35,581 nt of DNA, taken from Burkholderiales bacterium. Its GTDB lineage: Bacteria > Pseudomonadota > Gammaproteobacteria > Burkholderiales > Burkholderiaceae_C. The notes below the pieces were generated by a model. The model saw only the letters and a list, made by a program, of their open reading frames with translations. It was not told the origin of the DNA and ran no database searches. Of the stretch, positions 11,668 to 29,708 are shown piece by piece. The translations under genes were made by a program, and so were the position numbers. Position 1 is the stretch's first letter. Each line of letters starts with the position of its first letter. The stretch covers positions 1-35,581 of the forward strand of contig JAIXKR010000050.1 in assembly GCA_026932235.1 (NCBI GenBank), written 5' to 3'.

Positions 11668-11671
11668 GGGC

Positions 11672-12481
11672 TCAGACGAGATCGGCAAAGCCCGGCCGAA
11701 GCCGCGTGAACAGCCAGGCCCCGGCGGCCCCCAGCACCGGCAGCGCCAGCGCCTGCGGCCATATCGCCGCCACGTCGACGGCATCGCCGAACCAGGCCGC
11801 GCGCGAAAGCTCGATCGGCGCCGTCAGCGGATTCCACTGCAGCACCCAGCGCAAGGCCTCGGGCGCGGCGGCGCTCGAATAGAACACCGGCGAGAGGAAC
11901 AGCAGGCCCGACACCAGCAGCGGCACCAAGTGCTGCAGGTCGCGGACGTACGCGCCGAGCGCGGCCAGCGCCAGCACCAGCACGTACTGCAGCGCCAGCA
12001 CCCACGCCAGCGCCAGCGGCAGTGCCAGCCAGGACGCCCGCGGCCCCTGGCCGGTGACGAGCAGCGCCGCCCCCAGCACCACCGTCTGCAGCAGCACGTG
12101 CACGCCCACCTGCATCACCAGCGCCACCACCAGCATCTCCAGCGGAAAGACGACGCGCTTGACGAGGTTGGCATGGTCCTGGATGAGCCGCGTGGCGCGC
12201 GTGGCCGCCTCCGCCACCGAGGTGAACACGATCAGCCCGGCGAACAGCCTCATCGCGTAGCCGATGCCGCCGCCGGCCGCATCGCCCGCCCAGCGGGCCT
12301 TGAACACGCCCTGGAACACGAAGGCGTAGATGGCCACCATGGCCAGCGGGCCCATCAGCGCCCAGGCCAGCCCGGCCACGCTCCCCCGGTAGCGGGCCAG
12401 CAGGTCACGGCGGGCCAGGGGCCACGCCAGGCGGATGCGGTCGACGCGGAGCCGCCGCATGCGCTCGAAGAACCGTCGCAC
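11672..12481 (-). CDS. ABC-2 type polysaccharide export permease (Wzm/KpsM-like)
   Basis: A 269-residue integral membrane protein of the ABC-2 family with about six transmembrane helices. The N-terminal amphipathic segment ARRDLLARYRGSVAGLAWALMGPL is the typical ABC-2 interface helix followed by TM1, and PVFYSSAAAPEALRWVLQWNPLTAPIELSR is the conserved end of the domain. It forms the transmembrane channel for polysaccharide with the ATPase encoded directly downstream. The start is GTG 12481; ATG 12460 is an alternative and neither has a clear ribosome binding site. Its stop is followed after four bases by the ATPase start. Confidence 0.92.
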   Translation of the reverse strand: MRRFFERMRRLRVDRIRLAWPLARRDLLARYRGSVAGLAWALMGPLAMVAIYAFVFQGVFKARWAGDAAGGGIGYAMRLFAGLIVFTSVAEAATRATRLIQDHANLVKRVVFPLEMLVVALVMQVGVHVLLQTVVLGAALLVTGQGPRASWLALPLALAWVLALQYVLVLALAALGAYVRDLQHLVPLLVSGLLFLSPVFYSSAAAPEALRWVLQWNPLTAPIELSRAAWFGDAVDVAAIWPQALALPVLGAAGAWLFTRLRPGFADLV

Positions 12482-12493
12482 GAGGAACGCCCC

Positions 12494-13357
12494 TCAACGC
12501 ACCTGGGCCGCCGACGAGATGCGCACCGCCGTCACGGGCACGTCGGGAAACCCGCCCTGGATCGGGGCGTCGTGCACCGGAACGGCAGCCACTTCGTCCA
12601 TGATCGCAAGGCCCTCGACGACGCGTCCGAAGACCGTGAACCCCTCGTCCCCCGTCCCGAAGTCGAACTGCGGGTTGTCGACGGTGTTGATCAGGAACAT
12701 CGAGTTCGGCGCCACCAGATCCCCGTCCCGGTACATCGCCAGCGTGCCGCGCAGGTTGGACAGCGTGCTGCGCTCCACCGGCAGATCAGGCAGCTTCAGC
12801 TCCTTGGCGACCAGTGCCTCGTCCGTCCCCACGCCATAGCCGCCGCCGAGGATCCCGATCCGTTGCACCACGCGGTGGAAGACGGAAGCGGCATAGAAGC
12901 CCGAATTGACGTTGGCCAGGAAGCGCGTGGCGGACAGCGGCGCGGCAACCGGGTCGACCTCGACGATGAGGCTGCCGCTGCGCGTACCGTCGGTGACGCC
13001 CAGCACCACGCGCGGCACGGGGATTTCGACCCGCAGCGAGCCCAGGCGCGTGCCGCCGTCCTTGCCCGCCAGGCCGACCACGATCGGCCCGAGCCCGCCG
13101 ACGACGCAGGTGAACTGCGCCACGGTCGCGGCGACGCCGACCGTGGCCAGGTCGGTGCACGGCCCTTCCACCCAGGCCTCGACCCCCTGGTCCAGGCCGT
13201 AGCCGTTGAAGGTGATGGTCATCGTCTGCGAAAAGCGCGCGCCGGTGGCGTTGGCGTTGCTCATCGACATCTCGCCGCTGCCGCCCCCGCAGGCCGCGAT
13301 CAGCGGCAGCAGCGCAAGCAGCGTCGCCCAGCGGCGCGCTTTGGAGTGTGCGTTCAT
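12494..13357 (-). CDS. Cyclophilin-like peptidyl-prolyl isomerase lipoprotein
   Basis: A 287-residue predicted lipoprotein: a basic N-terminus, a hydrophobic stretch and the lipobox IAAC, followed by GGGSG. Residues about 30-120 form an unassigned domain with two cysteines. The rest is cyclophilin-like, with FHRV, SNLRGTLAMYRDG, NSMFLINTVDNPQFDF and FTVFGRVVEG. The usual Gln of the FMIQGG motif is Leu here (GILGGG), so activity may be reduced. ATG 13357 gives a normal signal peptide; ATG 13393 is directly coupled to the TolC stop (TGAATG) and would add 12 residues. Its position behind the type I secretion genes suggests help in folding a secreted or outer-membrane client (inference). Confidence 0.82.
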   Translation of the reverse strand: MNAHSKARRWATLLALLPLIAACGGGSGEMSMSNANATGARFSQTMTITFNGYGLDQGVEAWVEGPCTDLATVGVAATVAQFTCVVGGLGPIVVGLAGKDGGTRLGSLRVEIPVPRVVLGVTDGTRSGSLIVEVDPVAAPLSATRFLANVNSGFYAASVFHRVVQRIGILGGGYGVGTDEALVAKELKLPDLPVERSTLSNLRGTLAMYRDGDLVAPNSMFLINTVDNPQFDFGTGDEGFTVFGRVVEGLAIMDEVAAVPVHDAPIQGGFPDVPVTAVRISSAAQVR

Positions 13358-13393
13358 CTCGGAAGAATGCGTCAGTCGGTGAAGATCGGACAT

Positions 13394-14782
13394 TCAGAAA
13401 TCCACGCGCACCGCCAGCTCCGCGGCAAGGCGGTCCACCACCTGCTGCATGGGCTCGCCGGCGAGCACCGACACCCGGCTGCGCGCCATCAGGTGCTCGT
13501 ACTGGGCCTGTGCCAGGTCGCGGCGCGCCGAGAGCAGGCGGCTGCGGGCCACGAGGACGTCGGACTGCGTTCCCAGGCCCGCGGCGAGCGCGCGCGTGGC
13601 GCCTTCGAGCGCCACTTCGCTGGCGGCCACGGCCTTGCGCAGCGCCTGCGTGCGCTGCGCCGCCGCGTCCGCGGACTGCAGCAGCCGGCGCAGTTCCACG
13701 CGCAGGTTGTCCTGCTCGGCGCGAAGATCCTCCGCGGCGCGCGCCGCGTCCAGCTCGGCCTGCCGCACCGAAGCGTCCACGCCGCCGCCGTTGAACAAGG
13801 GCACGGACAGCTGCACGCCCACGCTGAACAGGCGCGAGGTCTGGTCGAGGTTGGCCAGCGACTCGTTGCGGCTGCGCGTCACGCTGGCCACGGCATCGAC
13901 GCGCGGCAGATGCCCCGCCTGGTTGCGCCTGACCGCGAAGCGGGCCGAGTCCAGGGCCGCCAGGCGCATCCGTACGGCCGGGCTGTCGGCCAATGCCTGC
14001 TCGGTCTGGTCCCGCAGCGTCGTCAAAGGCACGGCCTGGGGCGCGAAGTCGGGTGGGACATCGTTGACGAACGCCGGCGTGCGGCCCGTCAGGCGCTGCA
14101 GCCGCGCCATCCCCAGCGCCAGGCGCTCATGCGCCTCGGCCTGCCGCACCCGGGCCAGCTCGAGCTCGGCCAGCGCCTGCGCCACGTCGGTGCGCGTGCC
14201 TTCGCCCAGGCGAAGCCGGTGCTCGGTGCGCCGGTGCTGCTCTTCCAGGGCCAGGACCTCCGCGGCGTTGAGCGCCAGCACCGCCCGCGCCTCGACCAGT
14301 TGCAGATAGGCTTGCACGAGCCGGTCGACCAGGTCCAGCCCACGCGCGCGCAGGCTCTCGTCCGCACCGCGCGCCTGGGCCTGCGCCTGGTCGAGCCGGC
14401 TCCAGGCCTCGTAGTTGAAGAGCGGCATGCGCAGCGACAGCGCCGCCTGGGGCGAGCGGTACTGCAGCCGCGCCGTCACCTCCTGGTCCGAGGCGTTGGG
14501 AAACGAGCGCGTCCCTTCGACCTCGCCGGTGCTGTAGCTCAGCGACGCCTGGGGCAGGAGCTGCGCGCGCGCGATGGGCACCCCCTGCTGGGCCGAATCG
14601 CGGTCGTACAGGGCCGCGCGGTACTGCGCGTCGTGCGCCAGCGCCGCGTCGAAGGCTTCGTTCAGGGTCATCGCGCGGGCCGGGAACGCCGCGCCGGCCG
14701 CCCACAGCGCCGCCGCCAGGGTCGCGCGGCAGCGCCGGCGCCGGGCGGCCGCGGCACGGGCCGCCGCATGGACCTTGTTCAT
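13394..14782 (-). CDS. TolC-family outer membrane channel of the type I secretion system
   Basis: The 462-residue product has an Arg-rich signal peptide (cleavage probably after FPARA) and two tandem TolC/OEP repeats, each with long helical stretches and short strand segments (SLSYSTGEVEG, LSLRMPLFNYEAWSRLDQA; VDAVASVTRSRNES, VGVQLSVPLFNGGGVDASVRQAELD). It forms the trimeric outer-membrane duct that docks on the HlyD adaptor. GAGGAG lies five bases before the ATG and overlaps the end of the hlyD-like gene, with a gap of only two bases. It is more like PrtF/RsaF-type T1SS channels than drug-efflux TolC, judging by context. Confidence 0.93.
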   Translation of the reverse strand: MNKVHAAARAAAARRRRCRATLAAALWAAGAAFPARAMTLNEAFDAALAHDAQYRAALYDRDSAQQGVPIARAQLLPQASLSYSTGEVEGTRSFPNASDQEVTARLQYRSPQAALSLRMPLFNYEAWSRLDQAQAQARGADESLRARGLDLVDRLVQAYLQLVEARAVLALNAAEVLALEEQHRRTEHRLRLGEGTRTDVAQALAELELARVRQAEAHERLALGMARLQRLTGRTPAFVNDVPPDFAPQAVPLTTLRDQTEQALADSPAVRMRLAALDSARFAVRRNQAGHLPRVDAVASVTRSRNESLANLDQTSRLFSVGVQLSVPLFNGGGVDASVRQAELDAARAAEDLRAEQDNLRVELRRLLQSADAAAQRTQALRKAVAASEVALEGATRALAAGLGTQSDVLVARSRLLSARRDLAQAQYEHLMARSRVSVLAGEPMQQVVDRLAAELAVRVDF

Positions 14783-14784
14783 GC

Positions 14785-16170
14785 TCACTCCTCGCTCATG
14801 GCCGTCGCCAGCCGCTTCAGCAAGGGGTGCACCAGGTAGGTCAGGAGTGAGCGCTCCCCGGTCTTGACCAGCACTTCGGCGTTCATGCCCGGCTGCAGCG
14901 TCCGCTTGCCCAGCACCTTGCGCCCCTCCTCGGTGAGCTCGATCCGCCCGAGGTAGTACATCATCGGGCCCATCGAGGTCTGCTCCGACAGCACGTCGGC
15001 GGACAGCGAGACGAGACGCCCCATGGCGACGAGCTGCGGCGCATCGGCGAAGGTGGAGAAGCGGACCTCGACCTCGTCGCCGGCCTGGACGCGATCGATC
15101 ACGTGCGTCGGGATGCGGGCGTCCAGCAGCAGGCGCTCGTCCTGCGGGACGATCTCGGTCAGCCGCTGGCCCGGCGTCACCACGGCGCCCGGGCCATGCA
15201 CCGCCAGGTCCAGGACATGGCCGGCCACCGGCGCCCGAATCTGCATGCGCTCGAGGTCCTCGGTCACTGCGCGCAGACGCTCCTGGTTGGCGTCCACCTC
15301 GCGCTTGATCTCGGCCAGTTGGCCCGAGGTCTCCTGCATGCGCTCCTGCTGCCGCTGCGCGATGCGCAGCCGCGTCTCGGCAATCGTGCTGCGGGCGCGC
15401 TGGATCGCCGACTGCTGATCGGCGATCGAGGCCCGCAGCTCGGCCTGCGCCTGCTGCAGTTGCAGCACCTGGTTGCGCGGCGCGAACCCGTCGGCCGCCA
15501 GGCCCTGGACGTTCTGGAGCTGCTGCGCCTGCAGCGCGGCCTGGCTGCTCCGGCTCTGCAGCACCAGTTCGACCGCGGCAATCTGGCCCTCGAGCCCCGT
15601 GATGGTCTGGTTGGCCGCGGCCACCTCGGCAGCGAGCGCGGCCCGCCGCGCCTGGAACAACTGCTCCTGCACCCGCATGTGCTCCGCGGCCATCGGGTCG
15701 CTGGAGCGCAGCAGGTCGGGATGGAAGCGGATCGACGGCGCGCCGGCGGCCTCGGCCAGCAGGCGGCTCTCCATGGCGCGCTGGGACAGGTAAGCTTGGC
15801 GGATGGTCTCCTGCTGGGCGCGAGCGGTCACGTCGTCGAGCTCGATCAGGACGTCTCCGGGCTCGACCAGCGCCCCTTCCCGGACGCGCACGGCCTTGAC
15901 CACGCCCCCCGACAGGTGCTGGACGAGCTTGCGCCGGGTCTCCACCGAAACCGTGGCCGGCGCGGGCACGCCCTCGTCCAGCGGGGCATAGGCGGCCCAG
16001 GCGAGGAAGAGCCCGAAGCCCACCACGAGGACCCAGAACCCCAGGCGGATGACCTGGCCGGTGTCGCTGCGCTTGGCGATCACCGCGGCGTCGCGGCGGG
16101 CTTCGTCGCCGGCGGCATCGGCATCGGCATCGGCCTGGCTGGAGGTGGCGGGGCGTGGGGTGGCGTTCAT
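14785..16170 (-). CDS. HlyD/PrtE-family type I secretion membrane fusion protein
   Basis: The adaptor of the T1SS (461 residues): a short cytoplasmic tail with an Ala-Asp repeat (ADADADA), one transmembrane helix (about residues 45-65), a lipoyl half (VQHLSGGVVKAVRVREGALVEPGDVLIELDD), a long coiled coil of Gln/Ala/Arg-rich helices (about 120-320), the second lipoyl half (IRAPVAGHVLDLAVHGPGAVVTPGQ), and a beta-barrel ending in LQPGMNAEVLVKTGERSLLTYLVHPL, the canonical HlyD C-terminus. It bridges ABC transporter and TolC-like channel in the periplasm. ATG 16170 overlaps the upstream stop as ATGA. Confidence 0.96.
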   Translation of the reverse strand: MNATPRPATSSQADADADAAGDEARRDAAVIAKRSDTGQVIRLGFWVLVVGFGLFLAWAAYAPLDEGVPAPATVSVETRRKLVQHLSGGVVKAVRVREGALVEPGDVLIELDDVTARAQQETIRQAYLSQRAMESRLLAEAAGAPSIRFHPDLLRSSDPMAAEHMRVQEQLFQARRAALAAEVAAANQTITGLEGQIAAVELVLQSRSSQAALQAQQLQNVQGLAADGFAPRNQVLQLQQAQAELRASIADQQSAIQRARSTIAETRLRIAQRQQERMQETSGQLAEIKREVDANQERLRAVTEDLERMQIRAPVAGHVLDLAVHGPGAVVTPGQRLTEIVPQDERLLLDARIPTHVIDRVQAGDEVEVRFSTFADAPQLVAMGRLVSLSADVLSEQTSMGPMMYYLGRIELTEEGRKVLGKRTLQPGMNAEVLVKTGERSLLTYLVHPLLKRLATAMSEE

Positions 16171-17933
16171 GGGGTGGGGGTCGCGGCGGCACTGGGCGCC
16201 GGATGCTGAATCTTGGCCAGTTGGGCGATGCGCCCGCCCTGCAGGACGAGCAGGCGATCCGCCACGCCCAGCAGGTGCGGCTGGTGCACGATCATGAAGA
16301 CGGTCCGGCGCTGGGCCTTGAGCTCGGCGACCGCGCGCAGGAGCGCCATCTCCCCGACATCGTCGAGGTTCGAGGTCGGCTCGTCCAGGACGACGATCCG
16401 GGGGTCGCCCAGGATCGCCCGCGCCAGGCCGATGCGCTGGCGCTGGCCACCGGAGAGGAAGGCTCCGGCCTCGCCCATCGGCGTGTCGTAGCCGCGCGGC
16501 AACCGCAGGATCATGTCGTGGATGCCGCAGCGCCGGGCCGCAGTGACCACCTGCTCCTCCATGTCGGGCGCGAAGCGCGCGATGTTCTCGGCGATGCTGC
16601 CGTCGAAGAGCTCGATGTCCTGCGGCAGGTAACCCACGTGCCGGCCCAGCGCCTGGCGCGACCACTGCGCCAGCGGCACGCCGTCGAGCAGCACCTGCTC
16701 CTGCGTGTCCGGCCACAGGCCGAGCAGGCAGCGCGCCAGCGTCGACTTGCCCGCGCCCGACGGGCCGGCCACGGCGATCACCTCGCCGGGGCCGAACTCG
16801 GCATTCAGTCCGTCGAGGATGGGCGCGGGCCGCCCGGGCGCGCGGGCGCTCAGGTCACGCAGCGTGATGCGGCCCTCGATCTGCTCGGCCGCGTGCGCGG
16901 CGGCGCGGGGCGGATTGCGCTCCATCAGGACGCGCAGACGGGCGTAGGCGGCGCGGGCGTCGAGCATCGGTCGCCAGCTCTGCACGATGAGGCCGATGGG
17001 CCGCAGCGCATTGGACATCAGCGCGTTGCAGGCGATCATCGCGCCGGCGCTGATGTCGCCCTCGATCGCCAGCACCGCCCCCAGCGCCAGCACCAGCGAG
17101 CCCTGCGCGTACTGCACGAACTTGATCAGGGCCTGCAGCCGGTGCCCGGCATGCGCGGCCTCGCGCGTGGTGTCGTCCACCCGGTCGTGCAGCTCGATCC
17201 AGCGCGCGCGCAGATGGCCGAGCATCCCCATCGCGTAGACGGCCTCGGCGTTGCGCAGCTTGCCCTGCAGGTACTGGTGGTTCTTGAGCAGCGACTGCTG
17301 GGCGCTGCGGTGCCGCGGGCCGACGAAGTGGTTGCCGACCAGCGCGATGGCCAGGGTCAGCAGCACGAAGAATGCCGCCAGCCAGCCCAGCCAGGGGTGG
17401 ATCAGGTAGAGCGCGGCGGCGTAGATGAAGACCCAGGGCGCGTCGACGACGGCGAACGCCCCGTTGCCCGTCAGGAACTGCCGCAGCTGCGTCAGGTCGC
17501 TGAAGGCCTGGCTGCCCTGGCTGGTGCGCCCGCGGAGCTGGTCGTCGAAGCTGGCGCCGAACAGCAGCGGTTGCGCCAGCTCGTCGAAGCGGGTGCCGGC
17601 GCGCACGAGAAGCCGCGAACGTGCCCAGTCCGCGAACCCCATCACCAGGAAGAGGACCAGCGCGATGAATGACAACGCCGCAAGCGTGTACTCACTGTTG
17701 CTTGCAAACACACGATCGAAGACCTGGATCATGTAGAGCGTCGGCGTGAGCATCAGCAGGTTGCTCACGAGCCCGAACAGCGCCACCCAGAAAAGCTCGG
17801 CACGAAAACGCCGCAGGATCGGCCAGAGGGGATGGACCCCCTTGGCCGGCACGGGTGCGGGCGTGTCCGGGGCGGCGGGAGTCGCCGCAGCGGCCGGCAC
17901 GGCCGGCGCGCCCGCCGGAATCGCGGCGGTCAT
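16167..17933 (-). CDS. Type I secretion ABC transporter (PrtD-like), second of a tandem pair
   Basis: A 588-residue half-transporter: an Ala/Pro-rich N-terminal tail, a six-helix type I exporter membrane domain starting about residue 40 (LMLTPTLYMIQVFDRV is typical of PrtD/RsaD), and a nucleotide-binding domain with GPSGAGKST, QDIELFDGSIAENI, LSGGQRQRIGLARA, VVLDEPTSNLD and a His switch in IVHQP. All catalytic residues are present. No peptidase or CLD domain is seen at the N-terminus, as expected for the PrtD group. GGAGG lies six bases from the ATG, and the start overlaps the stop of the other ABC gene by ATGA. It may be homodimeric or pair with its neighbour. Confidence 0.95.
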   Translation of the reverse strand: MTAAIPAGAPAVPAAAATPAAPDTPAPVPAKGVHPLWPILRRFRAELFWVALFGLVSNLLMLTPTLYMIQVFDRVFASNSEYTLAALSFIALVLFLVMGFADWARSRLLVRAGTRFDELAQPLLFGASFDDQLRGRTSQGSQAFSDLTQLRQFLTGNGAFAVVDAPWVFIYAAALYLIHPWLGWLAAFFVLLTLAIALVGNHFVGPRHRSAQQSLLKNHQYLQGKLRNAEAVYAMGMLGHLRARWIELHDRVDDTTREAAHAGHRLQALIKFVQYAQGSLVLALGAVLAIEGDISAGAMIACNALMSNALRPIGLIVQSWRPMLDARAAYARLRVLMERNPPRAAAHAAEQIEGRITLRDLSARAPGRPAPILDGLNAEFGPGEVIAVAGPSGAGKSTLARCLLGLWPDTQEQVLLDGVPLAQWSRQALGRHVGYLPQDIELFDGSIAENIARFAPDMEEQVVTAARRCGIHDMILRLPRGYDTPMGEAGAFLSGGQRQRIGLARAILGDPRIVVLDEPTSNLDDVGEMALLRAVAELKAQRRTVFMIVHQPHLLGVADRLLVLQGGRIAQLAKIQHPAPSAAATPTP

Positions 17934-19732
17934 TGCAGACCTCCGGCAGCGGGCAGGGGATTGACGGCCAGCCGCGCGGGCCCCGGCGGCTGCGGCGCGG
18001 CCTGCTGTTGCGCGCGATGCTGCTCGTTGGCCTTGGCCAGGGCGGCGAGCACGTCGTCACGGGGGCCGTGCATGGCGACCTGGCCTTCGCGCATGAGGAC
18101 GATCTTGTCGGTGGCGGGCATCAAGGTGTTGCGGTGGGTGATGGCCAGCACCGTCACCCCCTCGCTCTTCAGCCGTTGCAGCAGGGCCAGCAGCGCCTGG
18201 TCGCCGGCCTGGTCGAGGCTGGAGTTGGGCTCGTCCAGCACCACCAGCCGCGGCTTGCCGTACAGGGCGCGCGCCAGCCCAAGGCGCTGGCGCTGGCCGC
18301 CGGAGAGCACGGCGCCGTCGTCGCCGATGCGCTCGTCGAGGCCGGCAGGCAGTTGCTCGACCGCCTCGGTGAGCCCCACGCGCTCGAGGGCGTCGCGCAC
18401 GGCGGCTTCGTCCACCGGCCCGAAGCGGGCGACGTTCTCCGCCACCGTGCCCTCGAAGAGCTCGACGTTCTGCGGCAGGTAGCCGATGCAGGGCCCGAGC
18501 TCCGCCTTGTTCCAGGTGTGCACGTCGGCGCCGTCGAGCCTGACCTTGCCGACGAGGCAAGGCCAGACGCCCACGAGCAGGCGCGCCAGCGTGCTCTTGC
18601 CCGCGGCGGTGGGGCCGACGATCAGCGTGAGCTCCCCGGGCTTGGCCGCGAAGCTCACGTTGCGCAGGATCTGCGTGGTCTGCCCCGGCGCCACGGCCGT
18701 GACCGCCTCGACGGTCAGGTGGCCCTGCGGCGCCGGCAGGGGCATTCCCGGCTCCGGCTCGTCGTGGCCGGCGAGCAGGTTGCGCAGGCGGTCGCGGGCA
18801 TCGCGCGCGTTGATTACCAGGCGCCAGTTCTGCACGAGCTGCGCCAGCGGCTGCAAGGCCTTGCCGCCGAAGATCGAGGCGACGATGACCATGCCTACGC
18901 CGCCCCACAGGCCGCCGTGCAGGGCGATCCAGGCGCCGGCGCCGAGCAGGATCGAGCCTTGCAGCGTCTGCAGCAGCTTGGCCGCGGCCGAGGTCAGGCC
19001 GGCGTAGTCCGATGCTTCCGCCTGGCGCGCGAGGAAGCGGCGCTGCTTGGCATGCCAGCGGCCGAAGACGTGCTGCTGCATGCCCATGGCCTCGATGACC
19101 TGGGCGTTGCGCAGGACGGCGTTGAGGTGATTGGTGGCGTCGATCGAGGCGGTGGTGGCCTGGCCCAGCAGCGGCATGGTCCGGCGCTCGGTCAGCCAGC
19201 CGAGCCAGACCTGCACCCCCGCGCCGACCACGGCCACCGCGCCGAGCATGGGACCGAGCGCGAAGAGCACGAGCATGCAGAGCACGGCCACCGGCAGGTC
19301 CATGGCGGCGGTGATGACCGGCGAGGCGATGAAGTCGCGCAGCGTCTTCAGGTCGGTGAAGGGCTGCGCCGTGCCCCCCGGACGGTGACGCAGGTTGGCA
19401 TCGAAGGCCGCGCCGAAGAGGCGCAGGCGCAGGCGCTTCTCGAAATCGGCGCTGGCCGACTGGAGCAGGTGCTGGCGCACGAGGTCCAGCACCTCGACGA
19501 GCACGTAGACGCTCGTCACCATCACCACCAGCCAGGCGAGGGTCACGTGGCTGCGGCTGTTGATGACGCGCCCGTACACCTCGAACATGTACCAGGACGG
19601 GATCAGCAGCAGCGAGCCGGTCACGAAGCTGAGCCAGGCGACGTGCAGGATGAGCTTGCGCTGCGCGGCGAACGCCGCGCGCAGGGGGCTGTCGGCCGCG
19701 CGCGGCGGCGCGGATGCGGGGGCTTGGCTCAT
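17930..19732 (-). CDS. Type I secretion ABC transporter (PrtD-like), first of a tandem pair
   Basis: A 600-residue paralogue of the next gene with the same layout: membrane domain (LLLIPSWYMFEVYGRVINSRS) and ATPase domain with GPTAAGKST (Walker A), QNVELFEGTVAENV, LSGGQRQRLGLARA, VVLDEPNSSLD and a switch His in ITHRN. The Walker A loop differs from the usual SGAGKST but keeps GxxxxGKST. A Gln/Pro-rich tail follows the ATPase. The start overlaps the stop of the TnpB-like gene (ATGA). Two adjacent complete PrtD-type ABC proteins with one adaptor suggest either a heterodimer or two substrates; sequence does not decide which. Confidence 0.94.
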   Translation of the reverse strand: MSQAPASAPPRAADSPLRAAFAAQRKLILHVAWLSFVTGSLLLIPSWYMFEVYGRVINSRSHVTLAWLVVMVTSVYVLVEVLDLVRQHLLQSASADFEKRLRLRLFGAAFDANLRHRPGGTAQPFTDLKTLRDFIASPVITAAMDLPVAVLCMLVLFALGPMLGAVAVVGAGVQVWLGWLTERRTMPLLGQATTASIDATNHLNAVLRNAQVIEAMGMQQHVFGRWHAKQRRFLARQAEASDYAGLTSAAAKLLQTLQGSILLGAGAWIALHGGLWGGVGMVIVASIFGGKALQPLAQLVQNWRLVINARDARDRLRNLLAGHDEPEPGMPLPAPQGHLTVEAVTAVAPGQTTQILRNVSFAAKPGELTLIVGPTAAGKSTLARLLVGVWPCLVGKVRLDGADVHTWNKAELGPCIGYLPQNVELFEGTVAENVARFGPVDEAAVRDALERVGLTEAVEQLPAGLDERIGDDGAVLSGGQRQRLGLARALYGKPRLVVLDEPNSSLDQAGDQALLALLQRLKSEGVTVLAITHRNTLMPATDKIVLMREGQVAMHGPRDDVLAALAKANEQHRAQQQAAPQPPGPARLAVNPLPAAGGLQ

Positions 19733-20415
19733 TGGAGGCGTGGCGTAGGCGTGGAGCCGGGCGCCGGACCGCCGGACGCGGCGTCGGGATGCACCCCCGG
19801 CAGGGTCGCCTCGTCCGCGGCGGCCGGCGGCGGGGCATCGACCCGGATGAAGGCCGGCAGGACTTCTTCCTTCGGGAGCGCCTGGCCCGGCGCCGCGGCG
19901 GCGAGGAAGAAGTCGAGCACGTATTCGCCTTGGCGACGATGGAGCAGGATCTCGACCAGGCGCTCGGCCGCCAGGCGCGTCTCGTCCCCGGGCGCGAGCG
20001 CGATCTCGAAGCGGATGCGCCCGTCCAGCGTGAACAGCGACGCCTGCCGGTTGCGGATGCTCAGCGTGTGGCGGTCGAAATAGACCGGCGCTTCACGGTC
20101 GAACTGCACGCGCGGCAAGGGCGCGGCGCCCAGCGCCTGCAGCGAATACGGACTGCCGCGCCCCTGGTACACCGCCCGGCACGCGCGGGAGACGGCGTGG
20201 ATGACGTTGCAGGCCATCTGCGAGCCCAGCCCCGGATGGCGCGAGCGCAGCTCGCGGTACGCCATGTGATGCAGCGCGACGCGGTTCCAGCAGCGGGTCT
20301 GCTGCGCCAGGGCGGCGACTTCGTTGCAGGCGCTGGCGAACGCCTCCTGCAGGCGCACCAGGCGCTCGCGGTCCTCGGGCGTGGGATACAGGCGAACGCG
20401 CAAGCGATTATTCAT
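19729..20415 (-). CDS. TnpB/OrfB-derived protein lacking the RuvC nuclease half
   Basis: A 228-residue protein whose sequence follows the N-terminal half of IS200/IS605 OrfB (TnpB). Residues 5-40 match the start (LRVRLYPTPEDRERL, then SACNEVA). Residues 42-82 match the helical segment (WNRVALHHMAYRELR, then GLGSQMACNVIHAVSRA). Residues 108-172 match the beta-rich WED part (VYFDRHTLSI, SLFTLDGRIRF, then LLHRRQGEYVLDFFL). TnpB proteins normally continue into a RuvC domain (GVDxG) and a Cys4 zinc finger; here a Pro/Ala-rich tail of about 55 residues ends the protein. No nuclease residues are present, so it cannot cut DNA in the usual way. Frame is intact and the stop overlaps the ABC gene by ATGA, arguing for a kept function rather than debris. 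A regulatory or RNA-binding role is inference. Family assignment is from remembered motifs. Confidence 0.72.
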   Translation of the reverse strand: MNNRLRVRLYPTPEDRERLVRLQEAFASACNEVAALAQQTRCWNRVALHHMAYRELRSRHPGLGSQMACNVIHAVSRACRAVYQGRGSPYSLQALGAAPLPRVQFDREAPVYFDRHTLSIRNRQASLFTLDGRIRFEIALAPGDETRLAAERLVEILLHRRQGEYVLDFFLAAAAPGQALPKEEVLPAFIRVDAPPPAAADEATLPGVHPDAASGGPAPGSTPTPRLQ

Positions 20416-20438
20416 ATAGGAGACGTATCCTATATGAA
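20411..20438. promoter_or_regulatory. Perfect 11-bp dyad over the start codon and putative -10 of the TnpB-like gene
   Basis: The arm TTCATATAGGA at 20411-20421 is repeated perfectly in inverted form at 20428-20438, with a six-base spacer. The proximal arm contains the ATG at 20415. It is strikingly AT-rich against this GC-rich background. It could be an operator for a dimeric regulator, or an RNA hairpin hiding the start codon. Confidence 0.75.
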
Positions 20439-20692: not shown

Positions 20693-20720
20693 AAAAAAGC
20701 GCGCTGCCGAAGCAGCGCGC
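20693..20720 (-). terminator. Rho-independent terminator of the RTX/S-layer-like gene
   Basis: On the minus strand GCGCGCTGC, a TTCG loop and GCAGCGCGC form a perfect 9-bp GC-rich stem with a stabilising UUCG tetraloop, followed by six Ts. It lies about 90 bases after the stop at 20809. It separates the highly expressed-type RTX gene from the secretion operon. Confidence 0.92.
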
Positions 20721-20808
20721 CGGGATTCATCCGCCCCGCAAGCCGCGCCGTGGGGTGCGCGGAGTGCAGGGCAGGCCGCCGCCGCAGCGGACGGCGGCCG
20801 GGCCGGGA

Positions 20809-23800
20809 TCAGCCGACGAAGTTGTCGGCCGTCAGCGTGGCCCACAGCGTGTCGGCGAGGTCGATCGTGCCCGCCAGGGTGGCGGTCACGCTGCCTGCGC
20901 CGGTGCCGGCGGCATCAACGACCTGGTACACCTTGCCGATGTTGGTCGCCGTGTCGACCGCCACGTAGACGTGCGTCTGCGCGGTGGCCGAATCGGTGTA
21001 CAGCCCGGCGACGAGCTCGGCGGTGCCGTTGATCGTCGTGACGAGATCGCCGACGTTGATCGACTTGTTGACGTTGAACGCGGTGCTCAGCGTCGTGCCG
21101 CCCAGGGCGCCGAAGTGCAGCATGTCGCCACCGGTGGCCAGCGCGCCGGCCTTGAAGTGGACGACCGTGTCGTTGCCGAAGCCAGCCTGGAAGACCACGG
21201 TGTCGTTGCTCGAGGTCAGCGCGGTCAGGCCCTCGGTGGTGCCGAGCACGATGACGTCGTTGCCGCTGTCGCCGGAGATCGTGTTGTCGCTCGTGGTCAG
21301 GCTGGCCGCGCCGGTGACCAGGGCGTTGCCGCCGAAGGCGCCGGTCTCGGCGATCTGGTCGACGTAGTCGCCCTTCGTGTCGAAGGACGACTTGGCCGCC
21401 GTCATCGCCGTCAGCACCGCCGCGTCGGTCGCCGTCACCCCGTAGACCTGGGCGGCGCCCGTGATCTCGGTGGTGTTGAGCGTGCCGGCCGCGGGCAGGG
21501 TGATCGCCACGCCGAGGTTGGCGTTGCTCATCACGCCGTCGATCAGCGAGGTCACGACCAGCGTGTTTGCCGGGCCGTCGGTGGCGACGATGAGCTTGCT
21601 CAGCACCGGATCGTTGTTGATCGCGTTCTTGATCGCCTGATTGACCTGCAGGTCGCTGGTCTTGTAGCCGGTGTTGGGCACATCGGCCGTGGCGGTGAGA
21701 CCCTTGAACGTGACCGTCAGCTTCGCGTTGAAGAAGTTGTAGCTGTTGTTCGCGTCCGACTTCAGGTCATTGACGTTGCGCTCGTCGTTGACGTTCAGGA
21801 CATAGCCGGTGCCCGGGGTGGTCGTCACGTCCTTCTGGTTGGCCGTGTTGAACACCCAGACGGCACGGCTGCTGGCCATACCGACGCCGCCGCCGTTCGG
21901 CGAGGCCGCGGCCGCGGCCGCGGCCTGTTCGGCAGCCAGCGCCGTCGCAGCGACGACCGCCTGCAGGTTGGCCTGCTCCAGCGCCTGTTCGGCGATACGG
22001 TTGCCGTTGGTGAACTGCAGCGCGGTGATTTCCCGGTCGACGTCCTGCTTCTCGTCGTTGGTGATGTTGTCACCGACCTGGATGCCGCCGACGATTGCCG
22101 CAGCGGTGACAGGAGCCAGGTTCACGGCCGGAATCACGTAACCGCCCGCCGCGGCGGTAGCGATGAAGGCGTTGATCTGCGCCTGGGCGTTGTCGATCAG
22201 GATCTGGGCGTTCAACTCGGACGTGCCGATGGCCAGAGCGCCCTTCAGGGTGGCCAGCGTCGACTGGATGCCGTTCAGCGTGTCGATGTGGTCCCTGTTG
22301 AAGTTCGACAGCGCGTTTCGCGCTGCCGTCGCCGCGTTGGCCGTCTCCGGCGCGCCCACGGCGTCATTCACGTGCACGTTCGAAGCGTTCGCCACGTCGT
22401 TGGGGTCTGCGCCCACGATGTTCGCCGCGTTACGAACCGCCGTGTTGTTGGCCGTGATCGCATTCGTGAGCGCCGCGTTGAACGCGATGTTCGCGTTGTT
22501 CGCGGTGTTGATGTCCACGTCCAGCAGCAGCGCGAGAGCATCCACGCCGGCTTGCGTGATGTTCGGGCCCCAGGCGAGCGCGGCCCAGTAACCGGCAGCA
22601 GTCGCATTGTTCAGCGCGACAGCGTCCGGATCGCCCCAGGCACCGGCCTGCCACGCCGCGGTAAAGGCCGCGACCGCCGCTTCGGGCGTCGTGCCGACTC
22701 CCAGCCCCGCCTTCAGGGCCTGCAGCGCTGCAAGCACGTTGGCCGAACCGATGACGTCACCTTCGCCCGGAGCGCCCGTCGAGCCGCCGTTGACGGCAAG
22801 GGTGGCGTTCACCACGGTCGCCTGGGTGGCGTTCAGCAGGGTGGCTTGCTGAGTCCAGTTGGCTTCCGCAGCGGCAGCCGTGGCGGCGGCCAGCTTGGCC
22901 GCGGCGACGTAGGTTTCCAGCAGCGCATTGCCGGCATTGAAGTCGGCCAAGGTCAGGTTACCGGCAACCGCCGCACCCCAGGTGACCGTCTGCGCGGGCG
23001 CAGCGAGGGTCGCGGGCAGCGCGGACAGCACGTTGCCGGTGGTGGTGTTGTAGGCGGCAGCCAGGGCCATGGCCTGCGCGTTGGTCAAGGCGCCGTTGCC
23101 CAGAGCCGTCACGATGGCCGCCTGGATGGCGGCACGCGTGGGCTGGGCGTCAAGACCGGCGGTCGGGGCAGCGGGATCGTTCCACTCGACCGGAGTGGTC
23201 AGGTCCAGCAGGTTCAAGTTCGTCACCACAGCGGCCGTCTTGACCGCATCGGTGTTGTTCTTGAGCGTCCGCGCGGCCAGCGCGGATGCCAGCTCGGCCG
23301 CTTCCGCCGCCTGGTAGGCAGCACCGGCAGCGCTCGCCTGGCCGTTGCCGGCGTTGAGCTCCTGCACGCCGCTGTTGTCGGCGTAGATTGTGTCGTTGCC
23401 GGCGCCGCCGTTGATCTTGAAGTCGCCGGCACCCGGGGTGCGGATGGTGTCGTTGCCATCGCCGCCATTGACGGTGATGTTGGCGTTGAGCTTCTGGTTG
23501 GTGTACCAGGCCTGCATGCCGCCGACCAGGGCGTAGGGCTCGCTGCCGCGCTCGATGGCGACGTTGAGCTGGTCATCGCCGCCGTTGCCGTTGACCGTGA
23601 ACGTGAAGTCCTCGCGGCCCGTCACGATGGTGTTGCGGCTGGCGGTCACGCCGGCATCCAGGCGCACGAAGATCTGGTCGTTGGCCTGGCCGCCGCTGTA
23701 CTCGACGTGCACGTTGTCGCCGGCCGGCAGGGCCTGGATGTCGCGCAGGTTCAGGTACTTGGCGACTGCCGCGCCGCCGAAGCTGGCGCTGTAGGTCAGC

Positions 23801-25569
23801 TCGCCGCGCATCGCCGAGCCGTCGATCAGGCGGACGTCGTTGAAGCCGTAGCGGTTCTGCGCAGCCGTCATGCCCGGCAGCAGGTCAGTGACTGCCGCCG
23901 CGTTCAGGGCGCCCAGATCGACGCCGGCGGTGAACAGGTTGGCGCCGTTGGCGAGCGTCGTGCCCATCACGCTGAGCTTGCCGGCGTCCTTGACCGTCGT
24001 GACGTAGGCGTTGCTGTTGCTCGTCGTCTGGCCGTTTTGCAGCGTGACTTCGCGCAGCGTGTTGTTGGTCGAGCTGATGGTCTGCAGCTTGCTGTTGTCG
24101 CGAACCTCGATCTCGAAACGCTGCACGCCCTGCGAGGAGGAGGTGGCGCCGGTGGACAGGCCGCCGACGACCAGGTCGCCGCCGGTGGAGCCGCGGCCGA
24201 CGTCGTCGAGCACGATGGTCGAGGTGACGAGCGAGGACGTGGACGTCGTGCCGGTCGTGTAGTTCGTGTAGAAGTTGGATTGCGGCGGCGCGGTGCCTTC
24301 GGCCAGCCAGCCCGAGCCGTCCGGCGTCGTGAAGGTGGCGGCACTCTTGGTCGTCAGCACGATCTCGTTGCCGGTGACGGCCTGGCGCGAGTCGGGATCG
24401 ACCACGGTGAACGCGGCACCCACGGTGGCGGTGGCGGCACCGGCACCCAGTTCGGCGTCCAGCGCGGCCTGGAAGGCGGCAGCCAGCTCGACGTAGGTCT
24501 GCGCGTCTTGGATCGCGGCGGACTTGAGGTCGACGGTGCGGGAAACGCCGTTGATCGTCACCGTGAACTTGAAGCCGCCGTAGTTGCTGTCCTTCAGCGG
24601 GGCCTCGCCCTTGGCGGCGGCCACCGTGTCCATCACCCTCAGGTTGATCGACGAGCTGGAGCTGACCTGGTTGCGCAGCGAGTACTGGTCGAAGTACACG
24701 CCCATGTCGACGTTGCCCGGATCCGATTCGACGAAGGCGATCGTGATGTCCTTCGTGATCTGGCTGGCCTGGATGCGGACGTCCTCGACGATGAGGTCGG
24801 CGCGGCTGTTGTACGACTCGTACCAGTTGACGCCGTCCATGCGCTGGGCGTCGATTTTCACGCCGGCCCGGCCGGCGACGTTGTTGTCGCCGTTGTCGGT
24901 CGTGTTGCGCGTCTGCGCGCGAACGGCAAAGGCTTCGACGTTCACCGTCTCGGGGGCCACCGCAAAGGGCGATGCCTGCATGTCGGCTTCGAGGCGGTCG
25001 TAGCCGGCACCGCCGTCGATCCAGTCGGCGGACTGCAGCGTGTTCGCGGTGTCGACGATGCGCGCGACGATCTTGTCGTCGCCGGCGGTGCCGGTCAGGA
25101 AGTCGCGGCCCAGGCCCAGTTCCAGCGTCTGGCCGGAGCCGAAGTCGCGGTCGGCCGTGCCCGGGGTCTTGCCGTAGGTGACGGCGGCGGCGATGCGGCC
25201 GTTGAAGGCATTGGCGGCAGCGCCATAGACCGGGTCGGCGGTCATGCCGGAGAACAGGCCGACGGCGTCGGAGATCGCCACGCCCTTGTTGCCGGCGCCA
25301 GCGCCGGCCATCATGGCCACCAGGTAGTCAACGGCGTCGGAGGCGCCGGTGGTGATGCCGAGGTTCTGCACCACGGCAGCGGCCACGGCGGCGTCGGACC
25401 AGTTGCCGAAGTCGCGGTTGTAGACGGCCTTGATGACGGAATCGACGCCGCCACCGGACATGTTTGCTTCGGTCAGCACCTCAGACATGGTGCCGTAGCC
25501 GAGCTGGAGGCCATAGAGGGCCGCGGCGGCACGCGCGACCACGGTTGAGGAGAGACTGGGAAGTGCCAT
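20809..25569 (-). CDS. Giant RTX/S-layer-like protein, T1SS substrate
   Basis: A 1586-residue Ala/Thr/Asn-rich acidic protein in which I found no cysteine and no N-terminal signal peptide, as in T1SS-exported S-layer proteins such as RsaA. Residues 1-130 look helical (possible anchor). Gly/Asp calcium-type repeats occur at about 158-167 (LTGTAGDDKI), 693-730 (GGDGNDTIRT, GGAGNDTIYADN) and 1430-1443 (ISGDSGNDVIVLG). Beta-rich, Ser/Thr-rich sequence fills 170-690. An Ala-rich helical segment spans about 735-1225. The C-terminus, ending GTIDLADTLWATLTADNFVG, looks like the uncleaved secretion signal. AGGAG lies eight bases before the ATG. The T1SS genes just downstream are its likely exporter. 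Function as S-layer versus adhesin is inference; no enzymatic domain is visible. Confidence 0.85.
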   Translation of the reverse strand: MALPSLSSTVVARAAAALYGLQLGYGTMSEVLTEANMSGGGVDSVIKAVYNRDFGNWSDAAVAAAVVQNLGITTGASDAVDYLVAMMAGAGAGNKGVAISDAVGLFSGMTADPVYGAAANAFNGRIAAAVTYGKTPGTADRDFGSGQTLELGLGRDFLTGTAGDDKIVARIVDTANTLQSADWIDGGAGYDRLEADMQASPFAVAPETVNVEAFAVRAQTRNTTDNGDNNVAGRAGVKIDAQRMDGVNWYESYNSRADLIVEDVRIQASQITKDITIAFVESDPGNVDMGVYFDQYSLRNQVSSSSSINLRVMDTVAAAKGEAPLKDSNYGGFKFTVTINGVSRTVDLKSAAIQDAQTYVELAAAFQAALDAELGAGAATATVGAAFTVVDPDSRQAVTGNEIVLTTKSAATFTTPDGSGWLAEGTAPPQSNFYTNYTTGTTSTSSLVTSTIVLDDVGRGSTGGDLVVGGLSTGATSSSQGVQRFEIEVRDNSKLQTISSTNNTLREVTLQNGQTTSNSNAYVTTVKDAGKLSVMGTTLANGANLFTAGVDLGALNAAAVTDLLPGMTAAQNRYGFNDVRLIDGSAMRGELTYSASFGGAAVAKYLNLRDIQALPAGDNVHVEYSGGQANDQIFVRLDAGVTASRNTIVTGREDFTFTVNGNGGDDQLNVAIERGSEPYALVGGMQAWYTNQKLNANITVNGGDGNDTIRTPGAGDFKINGGAGNDTIYADNSGVQELNAGNGQASAAGAAYQAAEAAELASALAARTLKNNTDAVKTAAVVTNLNLLDLTTPVEWNDPAAPTAGLDAQPTRAAIQAAIVTALGNGALTNAQAMALAAAYNTTTGNVLSALPATLAAPAQTVTWGAAVAGNLTLADFNAGNALLETYVAAAKLAAATAAAAEANWTQQATLLNATQATVVNATLAVNGGSTGAPGEGDVIGSANVLAALQALKAGLGVGTTPEAAVAAFTAAWQAGAWGDPDAVALNNATAAGYWAALAWGPNITQAGVDALALLLDVDINTANNANIAFNAALTNAITANNTAVRNAANIVGADPNDVANASNVHVNDAVGAPETANAATAARNALSNFNRDHIDTLNGIQSTLATLKGALAIGTSELNAQILIDNAQAQINAFIATAAAGGYVIPAVNLAPVTAAAIVGGIQVGDNITNDEKQDVDREITALQFTNGNRIAEQALEQANLQAVVAATALAAEQAAAAAAASPNGGGVGMASSRAVWVFNTANQKDVTTTPGTGYVLNVNDERNVNDLKSDANNSYNFFNAKLTVTFKGLTATADVPNTGYKTSDLQVNQAIKNAINNDPVLSKLIVATDGPANTLVVTSLIDGVMSNANLGVAITLPAAGTLNTTEITGAAQVYGVTATDAAVLTAMTAAKSSFDTKGDYVDQIAETGAFGGNALVTGAASLTTSDNTISGDSGNDVIVLGTTEGLTALTSSNDTVVFQAGFGNDTVVHFKAGALATGGDMLHFGALGGTTLSTAFNVNKSINVGDLVTTINGTAELVAGLYTDSATAQTHVYVAVDTATNIGKVYQVVDAAGTGAGSVTATLAGTIDLADTLWATLTADNFVG

Positions 25570-26039: not shown

Positions 26040-27521
26040 TCACCAGGGCCAGCGCAGTCCGGCGTAGACCGTGCTTCCCCGGCGCTCGAACAAGGTCAGG
26101 TTGCTGGTCTGCCGGTAGTGGCCCAGGCGCAACACCAGCTCGGCGCCCGGCAGGTGCGAGGAGCCCAGCTCGCGCGCGGCTTCCAGGTTCACGAAGAGCT
26201 GCTGCTGCCAGCGCACCGCGTTGTCCTCGAGCAGGGGACTGTAGCCCTCGCGGTCGCGCAGGCGCTGGCCGCCGACGCTCAGCTCGATGCGGTGCAGGGC
26301 GTCGGGCCGGTGCTCGACGCGCAGGGTCAGGCCCTGGCCGCGCTGGCGGCCGCCGGGACGGTCGTCCTGCCGCGGCTCGTCCAGCAGGCCGTAGGCGTCG
26401 AGCGTCCAGGACCAGTCGCGATGCCCTTCGGGCTGGCAATGCAGCCGCCAGCCGGCCTGCACGGCCTGGCTGTCGGCGGAATGCGTGCGGCGCTGCCGGC
26501 GCAGCGCGGCTTCGAGCTGCACGAGCTGCCTGCAATCCGCACCCTGGTGCTCGAGGCCGGCGCGGCCCCGCCAGAGCGCGTAGGGCTCGGCCAGCGGGCC
26601 GCCGAACCAGGCGCTTTCGACCTGGACCAGGGCGGTCCAGCCGTTCCAGTGCCCGGCGTAGCTGGCGGCGGCCTGGAGCTGGTGCCAGTCGGTGTCCGAG
26701 CGACCCGGCGAGTGACGGGCCAGCGCGCTGAGCCCGGCGCGCAGGGTGCGGCCGGCGGCGGGCAGCCACGCCGCCTGCCAGAGGACCTCGGCCCTGAGCG
26801 CCATGCCCCGGCGCGGCACGGTGTCCACGGGCAGGACGACCGGCCCTTCGGGCGCGGTCAGCTCCAGCTCACGCAGGCGCGGCAGGAAGTCGAGGTTGTC
26901 GTCGTAGCCCAGGAGGACGGCGGCCTCTCCCCGGCTGGCGCTGCGCAGCAGGTTGCCAGACGGGCCGCGCGACGACGACGGCTCCCTGCCCAGGGCGACG
27001 AGGGGCAGGCGCAGCCGGGCGCCAGGCTCGGCCGCGGCCAGGATGCGCGTGCGCAGCGCGGCGGGGACGTCCGCGCGGCCGGCCCAGGCGCGGGCGAGAT
27101 CACGCAGCGCCGTCGGCTCGCCCAGGGCGGCCAGGGCCAGCGCGTGATCGGCGAGCGCGCCGGGCTGGTCGGGGTCGAGCATCAGCGCGCGCTCGAGCCA
27201 GGTGCGGGCCTGCTCGGCGTCGCCGTCGTCGAGCCAGAGCGCGCCCAGGGCGGCCAGGAAGCCGGCGTCGTCGATGCAGGCATCGCGGGCGGCATCGAGC
27301 CGCCGCAGGTGCAGGCGTCGCTCGAGCACCCCATCCGGCCAGGGCCTGGGCACCAGCCGGGCACAGTCGCGGGCGGGGCCGGCAGCAGGCTCGGCGACGG
27401 CGGGGATGGGGGCGGCGAGCGGGACCGGCTGCGCCCAGGCCGGCCCTTGCACCAGAGCCCACGCCAAGGCCAGCCACGCCGCCCGCCGCAGGGTGGCCGA
27501 TGCTGCGGCCGCTGACCTCAC
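26040..27521 (-). CDS. TPR plus outer-membrane beta-barrel protein, Slam/DUF560-like
   Basis: A 493-residue protein with a signal peptide (hydrophobic stretch, cleavage probably after AWA), a periplasmic TPR-like helical region at about 50-170 (ACIDDAGFLAALGALWLDDGDAEQARTWLERALMLDP is a clear TPR) and a C-terminal region of about 290 residues with alternating amphipathic strands, beginning near VLLGYDDNLDF and ending in aromatic Trp (VYAGLRWPW), as outer-membrane barrels do. TPR plus barrel at this length fits the Slam (surface lipoprotein assembly modulator) type XI transporters; the assignment is from layout and a few motifs only. GTG 27521 overlaps the cyclase stop as GTGA. The partner would be the FecR-domain protein two genes upstream. 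Confidence 0.7.
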   Translation of the reverse strand: MRSAAAASATLRRAAWLALAWALVQGPAWAQPVPLAAPIPAVAEPAAGPARDCARLVPRPWPDGVLERRLHLRRLDAARDACIDDAGFLAALGALWLDDGDAEQARTWLERALMLDPDQPGALADHALALAALGEPTALRDLARAWAGRADVPAALRTRILAAAEPGARLRLPLVALGREPSSSRGPSGNLLRSASRGEAAVLLGYDDNLDFLPRLRELELTAPEGPVVLPVDTVPRRGMALRAEVLWQAAWLPAAGRTLRAGLSALARHSPGRSDTDWHQLQAAASYAGHWNGWTALVQVESAWFGGPLAEPYALWRGRAGLEHQGADCRQLVQLEAALRRQRRTHSADSQAVQAGWRLHCQPEGHRDWSWTLDAYGLLDEPRQDDRPGGRQRGQGLTLRVEHRPDALHRIELSVGGQRLRDREGYSPLLEDNAVRWQQQLFVNLEAARELGSSHLPGAELVLRLGHYRQTSNLTLFERRGSTVYAGLRWPW

Positions 27522-29680: not shown

Positions 29681-29708
29681 TGCCCGTTGCGCCGATCGGC
29701 CGGTGGGC

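What the first reader, a model, noticed from the sequence alone, without database searches (positions are those of the whole stretch)
19729..20415. Nuclease-less TnpB-like protein embedded in a type I secretion operon
The 228-residue protein tracks the N-terminal half of TnpB/OrfB (LRVRLYPTPE, LHHMAYRELR, SQMACNVIHAV, FTLDGRIRF, GEYVLDFFL) and then stops before RuvC and the zinc finger. The frame is intact, it overlaps the first ABC exporter gene by ATGA, and no transposon genes lie nearby. Known nuclease-dead TnpB relatives (TldRs) act as RNA-guided repressors of surface-structure genes such as flagellin, but they keep a RuvC-fold remnant; loss of the entire RuvC half is more extreme. A domesticated regulator of S-layer or secretion genes is a hypothesis.
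Basis: partly seen in the sequence, partly recalled or inferred. Interest (0 to 1): 0.85.

Follow-up and report, generated by a model that had tools for sequence, protein, structure and literature searches.

The report
Half-TnpB regulator of protein export
A gene that looks like the DNA-reading half of a transposon's RNA-guided nuclease, with the cutting half gone, recurs inside a protein-export operon in many betaproteobacteria, together with a conserved DNA site built on the transposon's own target motif, so it is probably a transposon part reused as a gene regulator.

Summary
The 228-aa protein is the WED-REC half of a Cas12f-like TnpB, RuvC/TNB missing (AlphaFold2 pLDDT 89.5; Foldseek ranks 1-38 all TnpB/Cas12-type; hhalign E 1.8e-32). 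It is no decaying fragment: 16 of 16 protein-found loci with readable downstream DNA have a type I secretion ABC gene next, and no Pfam or NCBIfam model reaches its cut-off for the window protein. It occurs at 17 of 17 protein-found genes (inverted, direct or merged); where tolC precedes tnpN it sits upstream of tolC. The outer pentamer TTCAT also precedes 12 of 12 intact left ends of related TnpB elements. Most likely mechanism: a TAM-reading module turned into a dedicated, probably RNA-free, operator-binding autorepressor of the exporter operon. Binding, repression and RNA independence are inferred, not shown. RNA guidance by a distant guide is the main rival.

The parts
19729..20415 (-). 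Half-TnpB gene (called tnpN here): WED-REC domains only, 228 aa
20411..20438 (.). Operator-like inverted repeat TTCATATAGGA-N6-TCCTATATGAA at the start of tnpN
   Evidence: Whole own genome: the 11-mer with up to 1 mismatch occurs only here (two arms) and at the paralogous operon on contig C45 (the reversed control pattern also gave 2 forward and 2 reverse hits)
20428..20438 (-). Upstream arm (TTCATATAGGA on the coding strand of tnpN); in most relatives it lies just before the -10-like box
20411..20421 (+). Downstream arm, which contains the ATG (20413-20415) and covers the expected transcription start
   Evidence: the transcription start is inferred
20698..20721 (-). Terminator-like hairpin between the giant-protein gene and tnpN, suggesting separate transcription
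   Evidence: 1 found; shuffles mean 0.4, sd 0.6
17930..19732 (-). First type I secretion ABC permease/ATPase, PrtD type; its ATG overlaps the tnpN stop (ATGA)
   Evidence: TIGR01842, 582 bits, cut-off 510
16167..17933 (-). Second type I secretion ABC permease/ATPase, PrtD type
   Evidence: TIGR01842, 585 bits
14785..16170 (-). HlyD-type periplasmic adaptor (start approximate)
   Evidence: (TIGR01843, 333 bits)
13394..14788 (-). TolC-type outer membrane efflux protein (start approximate)
   Evidence: PF02321 OEP, E 9e-55
20809..25569 (-). Giant 1586-aa protein, likely T1SS substrate (inference; no family model or PDB relative found)
   Evidence: homologues upstream of tnpN in some relatives

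Best explanation
The protein is an exapted TnpB that has lost the nuclease lobe (RuvC, TNB). It keeps the WED-REC cleft that in TnpB reads the target-adjacent motif (TAM) as double-stranded DNA. It binds copies of TTCATATAGGA (TAM-like TTCAT plus ATAGGA) at the promoter of its own operon. One copy usually lies just upstream of the -10 box and another over the start site and start codon. It thereby blocks RNA polymerase and holds the type I exporter (ABC proteins, HlyD, TolC) at a set level, an autorepressor loop. Shown by computation: fold and homology, loss of the nuclease half, linkage to the exporter genes, site conservation, movement of the site to the front of tolC where tolC precedes tnpN, and identity of its outer pentamer with the motif preceding related TnpB elements. 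Inferred: that this protein binds the site, that binding needs no RNA, and that the effect is repression rather than activation.
For: Fold: AF2 pLDDT 89.5, pTM 0.81; Foldseek AsCas12f 8j3r E 6e-7, ISDra2 TnpB 8h1j and 8exa E 1e-4; hhalign E 1.8e-32. In ISDra2 TnpB the TAM duplex lies in the WED/REC cleft and the RNA scaffold on WED plus RuvC (PMC10097598, passages), so the retained half is the TAM reader. Linkage: 16 of 16 protein-found loci with downstream sequence have an ABC gene next; 65 of 66 complete site-found genes do, and the other has 53 bases left. Site: present in 17 of 17 protein-found genes, as 8 inverted pairs (one with a mismatch), 5 merged palindromes (one with a mismatch) and 4 direct repeats (one copy with a mismatch). 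In three genomes where tolC precedes tnpN the site is upstream of tolC, not at tnpN (G195, G155; G200, merged form). Same-genus genomes: exact 11-mer in 6 of 7 with the gene, all 11 copies at the gene, and in 1 of 53 without it. TAM link: TTCAT precedes 12 of 12 intact left ends of related TnpB elements in three genomes. Geometry: -10-like TAnnnT in 63 of 66, starting 16-17 nt after the start of the upstream arm in 47 and ending 10-11 nt before the ATG in 42.
Against: No binding or expression data. The 11-mer is longer than a 5-bp TAM, so protein-only reading needs six more bases; TAM plus 6 equals the TldR seed length (PMC13418256, passages), which fits RNA guidance too. The window's own site has a 6-nt spacer without a -10 box, and a consensus scan found no promoter there; a TAGGAT overlapping the upstream arm, 11 nt before the ATG, is only a by-eye substitute. 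Arm spacing (10-27 nt in 66 loci) and orientation vary, unusual for a classical dimeric repressor. In G366 both copies appear (by eye) to lie upstream of the -10, which activation could equally explain. How common TTCAT is among other TnpBs was not measured. That tolC is the first transcribed gene in G195, G155 and G200 is inferred from gene order.
Confidence: 0.45

Rival explanations
1. RNA-guided, TldR-like: the protein still loads a short guide RNA made elsewhere in the genome, with a fixed AUAGGA seed, and represses at TTCAT (TAM) plus seed.
For: TTCAT+ATAGGA is exactly TAM plus the 6-nt seed reported for TldR. WED contacts part of the guide scaffold in TnpB.
Against: RuvC, the other half of the scaffold-binding surface, is gone. 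Nothing guide-like was found beside the gene: ATAGGA/TCCTAT outside the operator occurs 20 times in 66 loci with no shared place; no rise of synonymous-site conservation at the tnpN 3' end (0.96-1.13 in the well-populated windows; mid-gene windows reach 1.30); no Rfam match in 12.5 kb of the window; in the own genome ATAGGAKACGTM has no exact match beyond the two arms, and three 1-mismatch hits against three in the reversed control. Merged sites change the bases after TTCAT. A guide that does not match beyond the seed would have escaped these tests.
Confidence: 0.2
2. The conserved site is read by another transcription factor (or RNA polymerase alone), and the half-TnpB does something else in the operon, for example as an RNA- or ssDNA-binding protein or assembly factor of the exporter.
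For: No direct evidence ties protein to site; the site overlaps core promoter elements.
Against: Site and gene co-occur closely, the exact 11-mer occurs only at this gene in gene-bearing same-genus genomes, and its outer pentamer equals the motif preceding TnpB relatives.
Confidence: 0.12
3. Same DNA-binding module, but as an activator that helps RNA polymerase at a weak -35 promoter.
For: By eye most promoters lack a good -35 beside the upstream arm; in G366 (L159, L193) both direct copies appear to lie upstream of the -10.
Against: In the inverted-pair loci one arm contains the start codon, and four of the five merged palindromes lie over it, the place for a repressor.
Confidence: 0.1
4. mRNA-level control: the inverted repeat folds as an RNA hairpin over the start codon.
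For: The arms are complementary and include the ATG.
Against: Four protein-found genes have direct, not inverted, repeats; in G195 and G155 the pair lies upstream of tolC; the -10-like box lies between the arms in 63 of 66 loci, so the upstream arm would not be transcribed.
Confidence: 0.02
5. A decaying IS200/IS605 fragment that chanced to sit upstream of ABC genes.
For: Full-length TnpB relatives exist in the same order.
Against: Intact frames of about 194-239 aa, 53% mean column identity over 62 sequences, conserved neighbour, one compatible origin in the tree.
Confidence: 0.01

Closest known systems
TldR (TnpB-like nuclease-dead repressors)
   Same: TnpB-derived, nuclease-inactive, linked to genes of the cell surface, probably acting at a promoter next to a TAM
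   Different: TldRs have an inactivated RuvC domain and use a guide RNA encoded beside the gene (PMC13418256, passages). Here the whole RuvC/TNB half is missing, no guide was found, and the evident target is the gene's own operon through a fixed site.
IS200/IS605 TnpB of a Cas12f-like kind (G107 L182, Methylomarinovum tepidoasis plasmid L200, G153, G078, G208)
   Same: WED-REC sequence (hhalign E 1.8e-32); TTCAT precedes the elements in G153, G078 and G208
   Different: The two tested (L182, L200) carry RuvC and TNB domains (PF01385, PF07282); they lie in IS elements, tnpA annotated beside the L200 gene.
Cas12f (type V-F effector)
   Same: Top PDB fold matches; PADLOC Cas12f profile hits the window protein, E 1.6e-5, and 2 of 62 members
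   Different: No RuvC here; CRISPR arrays were not sought.
Classical autoregulatory bacterial repressors (general class, recalled)
   Same: Site overlaps the promoter and start of the regulator's own operon
   Different: WED-REC fold; site units are asymmetric, inverted or direct, with variable spacing.

Membership tests
TnpB | WED and REC domains | tested here: met
   AF2 model and Foldseek; hhalign
TnpB | RuvC nuclease domain and TNB/zinc ribbon | tested here: not met
   The frame ends; no PF01385/PF07282 match for the window protein or among the 12 families listed for the 62 members, while two full-length relatives match both
TnpB | Location in an IS200/IS605 or IS607 element with ends | tested here: not met
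   Next gene is an exporter ABC gene in 16 of 16 testable loci; element ends and tnpA were not searched for systematically, none was recognised by eye in the ORF lists around the T1SS-linked genes
TldR | Nuclease-inactive TnpB relative linked to non-transposon genes | tested here: met
   (nuclease loss inferred from domain absence)
TldR | Retained, mutated RuvC domain | tested here: not met
   the hhalign match ends at residue 174
TldR | Guide RNA encoded next to the gene | tested here: inconclusive
   No candidate found, but an unlinked RNA cannot be excluded
TldR | Binding to a TAM-flanked promoter target and repression | not testable with these tools
   A TTCAT-bearing promoter site exists; binding and repression need experiments
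Cas12f | RuvC nuclease | tested here: not met
Cas12f | CRISPR array | not tested
   Arrays were not searched for

The most novel reading that the evidence does not exclude
A TnpB/Cas12-type WED-REC lobe has become an RNA-independent, sequence-specific transcription factor: the TAM reader of a transposon nuclease, freed of guide RNA and nuclease, with its TAM enlarged into an 11-bp operator, controls (represses or activates) a type I secretion operon across Betaproteobacteria. That would be a DNA-binding regulator class born from RNA-guided machinery by deletion of the RNA-guided part.
Probability: 0.55. Interest if true: 0.93.

Novelty: new variant of a known kind. Interest (0 to 1): 0.86.

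Why it matters
The TnpB exaptations I know of (Cas12, TldR) keep RNA guidance. This family keeps only the half that reads the TAM, together with a fixed site whose outer pentamer is that TAM-like motif. It makes a clean, testable case of how an RNA-guided nuclease could turn into an ordinary DNA-binding protein. It also offers a natural minimal TAM-reading module for asking what WED-REC can recognise alone, and gives a family without a Pfam or NCBIfam model a predicted function in controlling protein export.

Tried and rejected
PHROGs gave nothing, Rfam nothing. A weak NCBIfam hit to 'putative anti-sigmaE' (26 of 62 members, best E 0.0011) covers about 40 N-terminal residues in the two members looked at that show it and was set aside. 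The left end of the single-copy G107 element suggests GTCAT by eye and is not counted; the Methylomarinovum left end was not resolved. Two weak protein matches, G010 (E 8.5e-4) and G447 (E 6e-7 over 55 positions), were not classed and are left out of the counts; G010 stands among the 53 genomes without the gene. The own-genome paralogue row in the tree was mis-framed by me and should be ignored; two TnpB rows there (G153, G288) are cut by contig ends, long branches are present and the bootstrap had not settled. The deficit of ATAGGA in loci (20 seen, 135 expected from base composition) was not followed; codon bias may explain it. A rise in synonymous identity inside ABC1 (1.50, columns 141-150) had no control and is not used. 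Mapping of published TAM-contact residues onto this protein was tried only by eye and is not used.
Full report
What is there. The ORF at 19729-20415 is on the minus strand, 228 codons, intact, and its stop overlaps the start of the first ABC gene by ATGA. The genes read tnpN (my name), two PrtD-type ABC proteins, HlyD and TolC. A 1586-aa protein without a family model lies upstream in the same direction, with a terminator-like hairpin between it and tnpN.

It is a TnpB half. One sequence alone gives weak hits (PADLOC Cas12f E 1.6e-5 over residues 1-182). A 62-member alignment (A1, mean column identity 53%) gave an AF2 model with pLDDT 89.5. Foldseek ranks 1-38 in the PDB are all Cas12, TnpB, TranC or Fanzor entries, 21 at E <= 0.001. 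hhalign against eight TnpBs gives probability 99.9 and E 1.8e-32 over residues 2-174. Two full-length relatives tested carry OrfB_IS605 and TNB domains; neither domain is among the families listed for the 62 members. In a published TnpB structure WED is residues 1-12 and 117-176, REC 13-116, RuvC 185-326 and 360-375; the TAM duplex sits in the WED/REC cleft and the RNA scaffold on WED plus RuvC (PMC10097598, passages seen).

It is a conserved operon member. Searching by protein or profile, 11 of 100 relatives, 16 of 399 genomes of the order and 2 of 369 of the class match, the own genome included each time; part of these are TnpBs in IS elements or fragments (G078, G208, G107, G153, G070, G288) and two weak matches (G010, G447) were not classed. 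Of 18 T1SS-type loci examined for context, 16 have sequence beyond the tnpN stop, and all 16 have an ABC gene next; the stop overlaps as ATGA in 8 of these 16. Seven TnpBs, two of them cut by contig ends, fall on one side of one branch (100/96), so a single origin of the half-TnpBs is compatible with the data (rough tree).

The site. An 11-mer, TTCATATAGGA, marks the gene or operon start. In the window it forms an inverted pair 6 nt apart with the ATG inside one arm. In the whole own genome, with up to one mismatch, it occurs only here and at the paralogous operon on C45. Because later loci were fetched by the site itself, the fair test is the 17 genes found by protein. Eight have the inverted pair (one arm of G034 with one mismatch). 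Five have a merged palindrome TTCATATATGAA (G200 with one mismatch). Four have direct repeats (one copy of G299 with a mismatch). Thus 17 of 17 (the two G011 contigs are counted as one gene, and the G034 contig ends at the tnpN stop, so its ABC gene is not seen). In G195, G155 and G200 tolC precedes tnpN on the same strand, and the site is upstream of tolC, about 1.5 kb from tnpN in G195. Site position therefore seems to follow the operon promoter. Direct repeats and varying spacing argue against a hairpin and against a rigid symmetric dimer site; the unit looks like an asymmetric 11-mer.

Site and gene go together. In 60 genomes of the genus, 7 have the gene. The exact 11-mer is in 6 of these 7, all 11 copies at the gene (the seventh, G050, has the merged form), and in 1 of 53 without the gene, as a single copy. 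Of the other 40 genomes in that search, 8 have an exact match; G060 carries the gene with the pair at it, and the other seven hold unpaired copies, probably chance. In a search of 13 more or repeated genomes, the exact copies in G293, G366, G155, G195, G060 and G299 are all at the operon; G329, G200 and G752, with merged sites, have none; of the four TnpB-only genomes G153 has one elsewhere and G107, G078 and G208 none. Of these 80: 66 hold a complete homologue starting at the arm's ATG and 5 a homologue cut by the locus edge, L082 a homologue beside a three-arm site, L040 and L098 the first 28 and 18 residues, L077 too little to say, and 5 none (L050, L061, L072, L110, Clostridia by title; L100, Candidatus Eisenbacteria). 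By record title the rest are mostly betaproteobacterial; five say only Proteobacteria and L085 says Crocinitomicaceae. Of the 66 complete genes, 65 have an ABC gene downstream and the last has 53 bases of sequence left; in 48 of 64 where a start could be placed it lies 4 nt inside the tnpN end.

Promoter geometry. In 63 of 66 loci the best -10-like hexamer between the arms is TAnnnT; it starts 16-17 nt after the start of the upstream arm in 47 of 66 and ends 10-11 nt before the ATG in 42 of 66 (the best hexamer was chosen by score, so the clustering is the evidence, not the match). By eye a few have TTGAC abutting the upstream arm (L060, L067, L088, L101). One arm therefore seems to fill the -35/-10 spacer and the other the start region, as expected for a repressor site. 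The window itself lacks a clear -10 in its short spacer and a consensus scan finds no promoter.

The TAM link. Multi-copy TnpB elements related to this family were compared in three genomes. Of 7 copies in G078, 6 have an intact left end, and all 6 are preceded by TTCAT. All 3 in G208 and all 3 in G153 are too. That makes 12 of 12, with different DNA outside. In IS200/IS605 elements this is where the target/TAM lies (established knowledge); no empty site was checked. The same pentamer is the outer edge of each operator arm. How often other TnpBs use TTCAT was not measured.

Is it RNA-guided? TAM plus six bases equals the TldR seed length (PMC13418256, passages seen), so the question is open. 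Against it: no ATAGGA at a shared place outside the operator in 66 loci, no rise of synonymous conservation at the tnpN 3' end, no Rfam match, no exact guide-like match elsewhere in the own genome, and the absence of the RuvC half of the scaffold-binding surface.

Literature. Searches of an open-access library (listings of titles and abstract starts, capped at 15 of 2,994, 15 of 19, 12 of 19 and 8 of 124) listed no paper on a RuvC-less TnpB regulator or on TnpB as part of a type I secretion operon. PMC8987985 (passages) reviews exaptation of mobile elements without such a case in the passages shown. Most subscription papers are not in that library.

Verdict. A real, widespread family without a Pfam or NCBIfam model: a TnpB half reused, most likely as an autorepressor of a type I secretion operon that reads a TAM-derived operator. 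Domestication and site linkage are well supported. DNA binding, repression and RNA independence are inference.

Noticed in passing
window 26040-31061 (minus): Upstream of the giant protein lie a TPR protein (weak match), a CHASE2-guanylate cyclase protein and a FecR protein; by eye a similar order precedes the homologous operon in L020, suggesting a conserved signalling and secretion locus.
   Followed up: partly
G000 contig C45 (L027, 9112-13602): The same genome has a second, diverged copy of giant protein, half-TnpB and exporter, with the merged site TTCATATATGAA after TTGACA-N17-TACGCT.
   Followed up: partly
window 10459-13393 (minus): Downstream of the exporter lie a cyclophilin-type prolyl isomerase and a Wzm/Wzt-like polysaccharide ABC exporter; by eye Wzt-like genes also lie near in L022 and L027.
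   Followed up: no
L182 near 4717 (minus), start of the full-length TnpB of G107: The start region of this full-length TnpB reads CTTTATATGAA, i.e. contains TATATGAA, the core of the operator arm; a hint that autoregulation predates loss of RuvC, or chance.
   Followed up: no
L049, L089 and L082 (upstream of tnpN): Two of 66 promoters carry a third, direct copy of the 11-mer 14 or 16 bp upstream of the first; L082 has three arms as well.
   Followed up: partly
L085 4827-5423: A MAG labelled Crocinitomicaceae (Bacteroidota) carries the member placed nearest to the TnpBs, with the same site and T1SS neighbours; binning error or transfer outside Betaproteobacteria.
   Followed up: no
window 20809-25569 and L044: The giant proteins share a conserved C-terminus (71% identity with L044 over about 200 residues), perhaps the type I secretion signal.
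   Followed up: no
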